Origin: Gammaproteobacteria bacterium
GTDB taxonomy: Bacteria; Pseudomonadota; Gammaproteobacteria; Ga0077536
DNA length: 54,369 nt
Assembly (NCBI GenBank): GCA_016874535.1
Contig: VGUA01000009.1
Span: 1-54,369 of the forward strand
Direction of reading: 5' to 3'
Part shown: piece by piece, positions 6,695-9,122 of the stretch
Position numbering within the stretch: the stretch's first letter is position 1
How the letters are laid out: each line of letters starts with the position of its first letter
The notes under the pieces: model-generated
What the model saw: the letters and a program-made list of their open reading frames with translations, nothing else
Database searches by the model: none
What the model was told of the DNA's origin: nothing
Translations under genes and position numbers: made by a program

Positions 6695-6743
6695 GTCCTC
6701 CTGTTCAGCGTTCATCAATCAGTTCCGGGTAAATTAGCACATC

Positions 6744-7780
6744 ATGACTCCCCTGCCGGTCTGCCTCCTCGCCTTGGCGAGTCTGTTCAGCGTGTCCGCA
6801 CCGGCCACGGAAAAATCGCCCGGGCAGACCTCGACCTTCACCTTCATCTTCGAGAACGATCTCTTCGGCGAGACCGACGCCCAGTACACCAATGGCCTGC
6901 AACTCGCCTGGCTGTCGGGCGATCTCGCACGGTATGCAGAGGACGGTCGGGTCCCGGACTGGCTGCTCGGTGTGGTTTCCAGAATGCCGTTCGTCAATGC
7001 CGAGGGGCGCCTGCGCAACGTGGGCTTCGCCCTTGGGCAGCAGATGTACACACCGGAAGACATCGCGCAGCGTGAGCTCATTCCCACGGATCGCCCCTAC
7101 GCCGGCTGGCTGTACGGCGGCGTGAGTTTCATGAGCCGCTCCGAGGCGGCCATGGATGTGGTGGAGTTCCAGGTTGGCATGGTCGGGCCTGCGGCGCTGG
7201 CTGAACAGGCCCAGAACCTCGTGCATGAGATACGGGGTCTGCCTACGGCCAAGGGTTGGGATCATCAACTCGAGAACGAACCCGGCCTCAATCTGATCCT
7301 CGAGCACCGTGACCGTCGCTGGCGCCAGACCCTGCATGAGCGCTGGGCTTTCGATGTGATCACGGGCGCGGGCGGCGTGCTCGGCAACGTCGCCACTCAC
7401 CTGCAGGCCGGTGGAACCGTCCGCCTCGGCTGGAACCTGCCGTTTGATTTCGGCACTTCGCCGATCAGGCCGGGGGGGATCCCAATGCACCCGCAGCGCG
7501 GGGAGATCCTCGCCTCGATCGCCGCACGCGCTTCGGTTTCCATGTGTTTGCGGGCCTCGGTGGGCGCCTGGTGCTGCGTGACATCTTCCTTGACGGCAAC
7601 ACCTTTGCCGACAGCCACAGCGTGGACAAGGAGCTGCTGGTGGGTGATGTCGTGCTGGGTGCCACCGTGCTGGCGGGCCCAACCAAGCTTTCCTATATCC
7701 AGAACTTCCGGAGCCGCGAGTTCGAGGCCCAACCGGACAGCCACAATTTCGGCTCGATCAGCCTGTCCTGGACTTTTTGA
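6744..7780 (+). pseudogene. lpxR: Lipid A deacylase LpxR family protein, frameshifted
   Basis: LpxR is an outer-membrane beta-barrel enzyme that removes the 3'-acyloxyacyl chain of lipid A. A signal peptide covers residues 1–~21. Family residues are present: N38/D39 in FEND, YTNG at 48–51, DRPYAGW, and H161 in the NLVHEIRG block with KGWDHQLENEPG. The frame then breaks near the 7-G run at 7472–7478. Upstream it reads GTSPIRPGG; downstream the family sequence resumes in another frame as DPNAPAARGDPRLD, then FAGLGGRLVLRDIFLDGN, and ends at 7780 as SISLSWTF. One more G would restore a protein of ~345 residues. The wrong frame stays open into lolC, producing a false 792-codon fusion. Mutation, sequencing error and tract variation all remain possible. 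Confidence 0.85.
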
Positions 7781-7851
7781 ACCGGGGCCCGGGAGTCGTA
7801 CCGGGTCCGCGCCCCTGCGGGTGCACCAGGAGCTTGGCCGCGCAGGGTTTG

Positions 7852-7860
7852 TGCTAGATT
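7852..7860 (+). promoter_or_regulatory. Candidate extended -10 box before lolC
   Basis: TGCTAGATT matches the extended -10 pattern TGnTAnnnT. It would place the transcription start only 1–3 bases before the lolC ATG at 7869, and no ribosome-binding site precedes that ATG, so a leaderless message is possible. This is a pattern match only. Confidence 0.25.
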
Positions 7861-7868
7861 CCGGCGCC

Positions 7869-9122
7869 ATGTATCGCCCCCTGTCCCTGTTCATCGGCTT
7901 GCGCTATCTGCGCGGCAAGCGGCGCAATCGTTTTGCGACCTTCGTGTCATTCGCCTCCGTGCTGGGGGTGGCGACGGGTGTCGCAGTGCTCATCATCGTG
8001 CTGTCGGTGATGAACGGTTTCGAGCGCGAAGTGGCAGGACACATCCTTGGCATGACCTCGCATGCAACCGTTTTTCGTGGCGGCGAGGCCATGGCGGACT
8101 GGCCGCAAGTCGCCGCGGAAATTCGCCGGGTGCCGGGCGTCACGGGCGTCCAGCCCTTCATCCGCGGCAGCGCGATGATCAATCGGCGGGGCCGCATCAA
8201 GGGCGTGGTGGTGTATGGAATCCCGCGTGATGGCGAGAACGAAGTCTCGGATCTCGCCCGCTATCTCAGTGGGACCAGCCTCGGCGACCTTGCCGCCACC
8301 GGTGGCAAAACCCCGGTATTCCTCGGCCGGACCCTGACGGAGGCACTGGACGCCGAACCGGGTGATACTGCCACGCTCATCATCCCCCGCTGGTCCGCGG
8401 AAACCGGTGCCACCCAGCCACGCTACGCACCCGTGAACCTTGGCGGTGTGTTCAGGGTTGGCATGCACGAATTCGACTCCGCTTTCGTGCTGATGGATCT
8501 ACCCGTGGCTGCACGACTTTTTGATTACGGGGAGGCCGTGACAGGCCTGCGGGTACGTTTCACCTCACCGGGAGAAGCGTTGGCCCAGGCGGCCCATCTT
8601 CAAACCGTCCTCGGCCCCGGCTTCGTGGTGCTTGACTGGAGCCAGTTCCATCGCAATTTCTTCCAGGCCCTGCAATCGCAGAAACGGATCCTGTTTCTCA
8701 TCCTGTCCGTCATCATCGGCGTCGCCGCCTTCAACGTGGTGGCCTCGATGATCATGGTGGTCAAGGAAAAACGCCGCGACATCGCCATCCTGCGCACCCA
8801 GGGCTGCACTGCCGGCACCATCCTCGGCGCGTTCGTGATTCAAGGTGTGCTGATTGGTGTTGCCGGGATCGCGCTCGGCGTGGCCACGGGAATGCTGGGC
8901 GCGGAGTACGCGAACGATCTCATGCGCTGGCTGGAGCGGAGCTTTGATCTCAAGCTCATCAAGGCGGATGTCTATTACATCGACTATCTGCCGACCCGCA
9001 TTCTTGTCGGGGATGTGTTGCGAGTCGCTGGCATCACTCTGGGGATCTGCCTGTTTGCCACTCTCTACCCCGCCTGGCAGGCCGCAAGGGTGGAGCCGGT
9101 GGAGGCGCTGCGCTACGAGTGA
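7869..9122 (+). CDS. lolC: Lipoprotein-releasing ABC transporter permease LolC/LolE family
   Basis: A 417-residue inner-membrane permease of the Lol system, which extracts outer-membrane lipoproteins and hands them to LolA. The N-terminus FIGLRYLRGKRRNRF and the first helix with IIVLSVMNGFEREV are hallmarks of LolC/E. A large periplasmic domain (~residues 50–270) is followed by three helices, with the conserved KEKRRDIAILRTQG loop, and the C-terminal PAWQAARVEPVEALRYE. The start is set by homology; a frame open from lpxR runs into it artificially. The lolD ATPase that normally follows is not here, because the next gene lies on the other strand. Confidence 0.92.
   Translation: MYRPLSLFIGLRYLRGKRRNRFATFVSFASVLGVATGVAVLIIVLSVMNGFEREVAGHILGMTSHATVFRGGEAMADWPQVAAEIRRVPGVTGVQPFIRGSAMINRRGRIKGVVVYGIPRDGENEVSDLARYLSGTSLGDLAATGGKTPVFLGRTLTEALDAEPGDTATLIIPRWSAETGATQPRYAPVNLGGVFRVGMHEFDSAFVLMDLPVAARLFDYGEAVTGLRVRFTSPGEALAQAAHLQTVLGPGFVVLDWSQFHRNFFQALQSQKRILFLILSVIIGVAAFNVVASMIMVVKEKRRDIAILRTQGCTAGTILGAFVIQGVLIGVAGIALGVATGMLGAEYANDLMRWLERSFDLKLIKADVYYIDYLPTRILVGDVLRVAGITLGICLFATLYPAWQAARVEPVEALRYE

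What the first reader, a model, noticed from the sequence alone, without database searches (positions are those of the whole stretch)
6744..9122. lpxR frameshift at a G7 tract, creating a false LpxR-LolC fusion frame
Seen: family sequence is continuous across the G7 run at 7472–7478 only if one G is added. The wrong frame stays open through the rest of lpxR and the intergenic gap into lolC in phase, giving an apparent 792-residue protein. Established: G tracts in surface-lipid genes can vary by slippage. Inference: options are a sequencing or assembly error, a fixed null, or a slippage-driven on/off switch of lipid A deacylation. Any automated annotation here will probably be wrong.
Basis: partly seen in the sequence, partly recalled or inferred. 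Interest (0 to 1): 0.5.

Follow-up and report, generated by a model that had tools for sequence, protein, structure and literature searches.

The report
lpxR broken at a G7 run
A gene for an outer-membrane lipid-trimming enzyme in an uncultured environmental bacterium is cut by a reading-frame slip at a run of seven Gs, and it looks like ordinary gene breakage or an assembly slip rather than an evolved on/off switch.

Summary
A G7 run at 7472-7478 splits an LpxR gene (PF09982): profile positions 2-231 lie before it in one frame and 237-323 after it in another. The shifted frame stays open into lolC (7869-9122), giving a false 792-residue ORF.

The switch reading is not supported. The nearest relative (same genus, 86% identity) has an intact lpxR with no G run there, and none of 46 homologues fetched by name has a G/C run of 7 or more. 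After the break the LpxR frame is still conserved: dN/dS 0.053, against 0.118 before it, and 37 of 37 near-invariant residues kept. So the break is recent, or not real.

lpxR is not alone. The same assembly breaks three metabolic genes at G7/C7 and a GT10 gene at G8; one of them also carries a 42-base deletion. At least two more genes break away from any homopolymer. mutS and mutL are present. I read this as unselected slippage: a recent null allele (0.45) or a consensus slip (0.35). A true switch is about 0.1. Reads would decide.

The parts
6744..7478 (+). lpxR, part before the break (residues 1-245; holds the catalytic-His equivalent H161)
   Evidence: PF09982 profile 2-231; H122 of PDB 3FID aligns to residue 161 (role of H122 from passages of PMC6260217)
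7472..7478 (+). G7 run at which the frame changes
   Evidence: read; relatives have no G run here
7478..7780 (+). lpxR, part after the break, in another frame, with its own stop codon at 7778-7780
   Evidence: PF09982 profile 237-323; 37 of 37 near-invariant residues kept
7479..7868 (+). wrong-frame stretch that joins lpxR to lolC in the 792-aa ORF; no family match of its own
7847..7873 (+). block before and over the lolC start, identical in G003 while the rest of the spacer has diverged; likely lolC's own start signals
   Evidence: alignment; function inferred
7869..9122 (+). lolC (LolC/E family permease), intact
   Evidence: TIGR02212 above cut-off

Best explanation
A length change at a chance-made G run has recently put an ordinary lpxR out of frame in the sequenced cells: unselected replication slippage, not a dedicated switch. 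The run is seen only in this genome; relatives write the same Pro-Gly-Gly stretch with codons that form no G run. Translation leaves the family frame at residue 245, so the product loses the last ~100 residues with the conserved C-terminal end of the barrel and would hardly assemble (inferred). LolC is made from its own conserved start, and the 792-residue fusion is an annotation phantom (inferred). Shown: private tract, family split over two frames, constraint still visible downstream, other genes broken at G7/C7/G8 in the same assembly. Inferred: that the break is in the cells and not only in the consensus.
For: Family split at the tract; G003 intact with no G run; 0 of 46 named homologues with a G/C run of 7 or more; purifying selection still visible after the break, so it is recent; SDR, FAD monooxygenase and isochorismatase-family genes also broken at G7/C7, and a GT10 gene at G8, so the process does not pick surface genes; the SDR also lacks 42 bases, so at least one of these is a true pseudogene; two more genes broken away from runs; lpxR is patchy (16 of 40 relatives including this genome) and ends early in 3 of 46 named homologues, so it seems dispensable.
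Against: No reads were seen, so the break may exist only in the consensus. lpxR itself has no second lesion. The share of broken G7 runs is not significantly higher than in relatives (4 of 37 against 0 of 33, p = 0.12).
Confidence: 0.45

Rival explanations
1. Consensus error: reads or assembler settled on the wrong length of the run, and lpxR is intact in the cells.
For: Constraint after the break is undiminished. Several unrelated genes break at G7/C7/G8, in both directions of shift. In 454 kb, 4 of 11 coding G/C7 runs shift frame but 0 of 50 G/C6 runs.
Against: The G8:G7 ratio (22:109) is like that of G003 (27:114), so long runs are not lost wholesale. A/T runs of 7 or 8 showed no shift (0 of 4). 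The broken SDR also has a 42-base deletion and two genes break away from runs, so true lesions occur here.
Confidence: 0.35
2. Phase variation: the run is a slippage switch for lipid A 3'-O-deacylation.
For: A G run inside a surface-lipid gene; a GT10 (fucosyltransferase-family) gene is also broken at a G8, and H. pylori fucosyltransferase genes switch at homopolymers (passage of PMC12342981). Downstream constraint persists.
Against: No tract in G003 or any other homologue examined; the run is only G7; three metabolic genes are hit in the same way; mutS and mutL present.
Confidence: 0.11
3. Recoding: ribosomal frameshifting or transcript slippage on G_GGG_GGG makes some full-length LpxR.
For: In the ORF's phase the run reads G GGG GGG, a heptamer that allows re-pairing in the family frame (read; the rule is recalled). 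Constraint downstream persists.
Against: No unusual downstream structure (z = -0.06; pseudoknots not modelled). The site is not conserved. Two of the four broken G7/C7 genes shift the other way, so no common recoding signal.
Confidence: 0.05
4. The 792-residue LpxR-LolC chimera is a real functional protein.
For: Uninterrupted frame.
Against: The frame opens by chance; the joining stretch matches no family; in G003 the same stretch read in that frame holds a stop and the spacer differs by gaps of 3 and 14 bases.
Confidence: 0.01

Closest known systems
LpxR lipid A 3'-O-deacylase (PF09982; PDB 3FID)
   Same: Both parts match the family in order, with the catalytic-His equivalent kept
   Different: Coding sequence split over two frames at a G7 run
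Homopolymer-tract phase variation (such as H. pylori fucosyltransferase genes; passage of PMC12342981)
   Same: Frame set by the length of a G run inside a surface-related gene
   Different: Tract not conserved in relatives; no evidence of on/off alleles; enzymes of metabolism are hit too
Ordinary homopolymer frameshift: pseudogene or consensus slip
   Same: One frame change at one run in an otherwise normal gene, several per assembly
   Different: Nothing distinctive; which of the two it is cannot be told without reads

Membership tests
LpxR (PF09982) | Match to the family profile over its length | tested here: met
   Profile 2-231 and 237-323 of 323, in two frames
LpxR (PF09982) | Catalytic His (H122 of 3FID) | tested here: met
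   Aligned to residue 161
LpxR (PF09982) | One open frame through the C-terminal strands | tested here: not met
   Frame changes at residue 245
LpxR (PF09982) | 3'-O-deacylase activity | not testable with these tools
   Needs lipid A mass spectrometry
Homopolymer phase-variable gene | Tract of slippage-prone length inside the reading frame | tested here: met
   G7; short compared with many known switches (recalled)
Homopolymer phase-variable gene | Tract kept in related genomes | tested here: not met
   Absent in G003 and in all loci read
Homopolymer phase-variable gene | On and off alleles in one population | not testable with these tools
   No reads and no second genome of the species held
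Programmed -1 frameshift site | Slippery heptamer in phase | tested here: met
   G GGG GGG in the ORF's phase (rule recalled)
Programmed -1 frameshift site | Downstream stimulatory structure | tested here: not met
   z = -0.06 over 90 nt; pseudoknots not modelled
Programmed -1 frameshift site | Conserved in relatives | tested here: not met
   Relatives code LpxR in one frame

The most novel reading that the evidence does not exclude
G runs act as slippage switches for surface lipid and glycan genes (lpxR and a GT10 gene) in a free-living gammaproteobacterium, giving a slippage-switched lipid A deacylase; the metabolic breaks would be by-catch.
Probability: 0.1. Interest if true: 0.55.

Novelty: new member of a known kind. 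Interest (0 to 1): 0.2.

Why it matters
Mainly as a caution: automated annotation here would call a 792-residue LpxR-LolC chimera and miss lpxR. If the run does vary among living cells, it would be an unusual case of switchable lipid A acylation in an environmental bacterium.

Tried and rejected
Considered and rejected or lowered: (1) Old fixed null: downstream frame still constrained. (2) Mismatch-repair loss as the cause: mutS full length and mutL open in this genome; function not tested. (3) Wholesale loss of long homopolymers by the assembly: G8:G7 ratio is like G003's. (4) An excess of broken G7 runs special to this genome: suggested by the first 40 tracts (p = 0.012), weakened by 40 more (4 of 37 against 0 of 33, p = 0.12). 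Six changes were flagged at G7 in this genome: four real, two (L239, L255) gene boundaries by reading. Three flagged in G003 were gene boundaries and were left out of the 33. (5) My impression in notes that this genome's frameshifts lie only at G7 was wrong: reading more candidates showed two breaks away from homopolymers, and one in G003. Besides the G7 cases I read 14 candidate places of this genome and one of G003 by eye; the other rows printed, and the 12 of 358 G/C5 runs marked 'diff', were not read. (6) Promoter scan gave nothing. (7) One search aligned G003 on the wrong strand and is void (replaced); one search used unturned loci and is void (replaced). (8) DNA of the broken isochorismatase gene found no counterpart in G003. 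(9) Literature: listings for LpxR with phase variation or frameshift showed no homopolymer switching of lpxR (open-licence PMC only); searches gave nothing used.

Full report
Setting. The window is contig C9 of a 3.08-Mb, 189-contig, 97.6% complete genome. Its nearest held relative, G003, has the locus on a 14,859-base contig. A named record of the same length with the same 86% match is JAURMM010000235.1, a Gammaproteobacteria MAG (isolate SFB_Oligo_Co_35). I therefore take the organism to be an uncultured environmental gammaproteobacterium; the link to that record rests on length and identity only.

Observation. The G7 run is at 7472-7478. Pfam LpxR covers 6744-7478 in one frame (profile 2-231) and 7478-7777 in another (237-323). 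The catalytic His of S. Typhimurium LpxR (H122; passages of PMC6260217) aligns to residue 161, before the break. Lost from the frame are the last ~100 residues, which align to the C-terminal part of 3FID, with the conserved ending. The wrong frame runs on to lolC and gives the 792-aa ORF.

Is the long frame remarkable? No. 38% of 2000 synonymous shuffles leave it open to lolC, and the phase then fits one time in three. The block before and over the lolC start is identical in G003, while the rest of the spacer has diverged with gaps of 3 and 14 bases. This points to an independent lolC start (inference).

Relatives. 16 of 40 relatives, this genome included, have LpxR, and 4 of 6 genomes of the genus. 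G003 has the gene intact; at the site it writes Pro-Gly-Gly-Asp with codons that form no G run. In 13 aligned relatives the motif over the site is continuous (the more distant L015, L016 and L017 were left out of that alignment). Of 46 homologues fetched by name (one of them the named record of G003), none has a G/C run of 7 or more within 1,100 bases of the match start, and 43 read to a normal end. The other three end early: L038 at a stop after 215 residues, L068 near a G6, L069 not at a homopolymer. So lpxR is broken now and then elsewhere, at other places.

Age of the break. Against G003, dN/dS is 0.118 before the tract, 0.053 after it in the family frame, and 0.075 in the part of lolC compared. 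The two lpxR parts do not differ significantly (Fisher p = 0.17 and 0.38). After the break 37 of 37 near-invariant residues are kept; before it, 66 of 73. An old null is unlikely.

Is lpxR special? The genome has 109 G7 and 22 G8 runs. I sampled 80 of the 109 G7 runs. By a codon-usage score on both sides, 37 lie inside a gene, and 4 of these break it: lpxR, an SDR, an FAD monooxygenase and an isochorismatase-family gene (families). The other 43 were noncoding, edge, strand-change or gene-boundary cases. Of 20 G8 runs sampled, 10 were testable and one breaks a GT10 gene whose G003 counterpart is whole. In relatives 0 of 33 testable G7 runs break a gene (22 of 40 sampled in G003, 11 of 20 in G004). 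The difference, 4 of 37 against 0 of 33, is not significant (p = 0.12); within this genome, 4 of 37 G7 against 0 of 50 G/C6 gives p = 0.03. In the 454 kb scanned, 4 of 11 coding G/C7 runs shift frame and 0 of 50 G/C6 runs; these are the same four genes. Breaks also occur away from runs: two in this genome (DUF58-like and M16-peptidase-like, named by reading) and one in G003. The broken SDR also lacks 42 bases that G003 has, including the tyrosine of its YxxxK motif (motif recalled), so that one is a true pseudogene.

Mechanism. I conclude that replication slippage at a chance G run broke lpxR recently (0.45), or that the consensus slipped (0.35). A dedicated switch (0.11) lacks a conserved tract and a bias to surface genes. 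Recoding (0.05) has a heptamer of the right form but no unusual downstream structure. mutS and mutL are present, so a mutator is not indicated.

Literature. H. pylori LpxR is described as part of a constitutive lipid A pathway, and homopolymer switching there is described for fucosyltransferase genes (PMC12342981, passages). PMC3245313 (passages) describes LpxR as the last step of that pathway; of its two uses of 'phase variation' the passages shown were reference titles. Listings for LpxR with phase variation or frameshift showed no switching lpxR.

Noticed in passing
L126 (G000:C72:2001-3201): A GT10 (fucosyltransferase-family) gene changes frame at a G8 run; the G003 counterpart (L277) is one open frame without such a run.
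   Followed up: partly
L073 (G000:C1:14401-15601): SDR gene broken at a G7 run and also lacking 42 bases that hold the catalytic tyrosine in G003 (L280); a true pseudogene.
   Followed up: yes
L074 (G000:C1:22884-24084) and L078 (G000:C1:92887-94087): An FAD monooxygenase gene and an isochorismatase-family gene change frame at C7 runs.
   Followed up: partly
G000:C3 near 12177; G000:C5 near 24352; G003:C5 near 2578: Frame breaks away from homopolymers in a DUF58-like, an M16-peptidase-like and a flavin-monooxygenase-like gene (names by reading).
   Followed up: partly
L068 and L069: lpxR also changes frame in an uncultured Granulosicoccus (near a G6) and in Pseudomonas sp. F(2018) (not at a homopolymer).
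   Followed up: partly
window 6728-6750 and 7847-7873: Blocks next to the lpxR and lolC start codons, each with a TA-rich hexamer some 7-8 bases before the ATG, are almost unchanged in G003; this could mean leaderless transcripts.
   Followed up: no
G003:C153:26031-27020: mutL of G003 lies in an open frame of only 358 aa, against 555-667 aa in nearly all other relatives with a full N-terminal match; it may be broken.
   Followed up: no
L078 near 966-1000: A stretch of about 27-35 bases after the isochorismatase-family gene matches six places in G003, as a dispersed repeat would.
   Followed up: no
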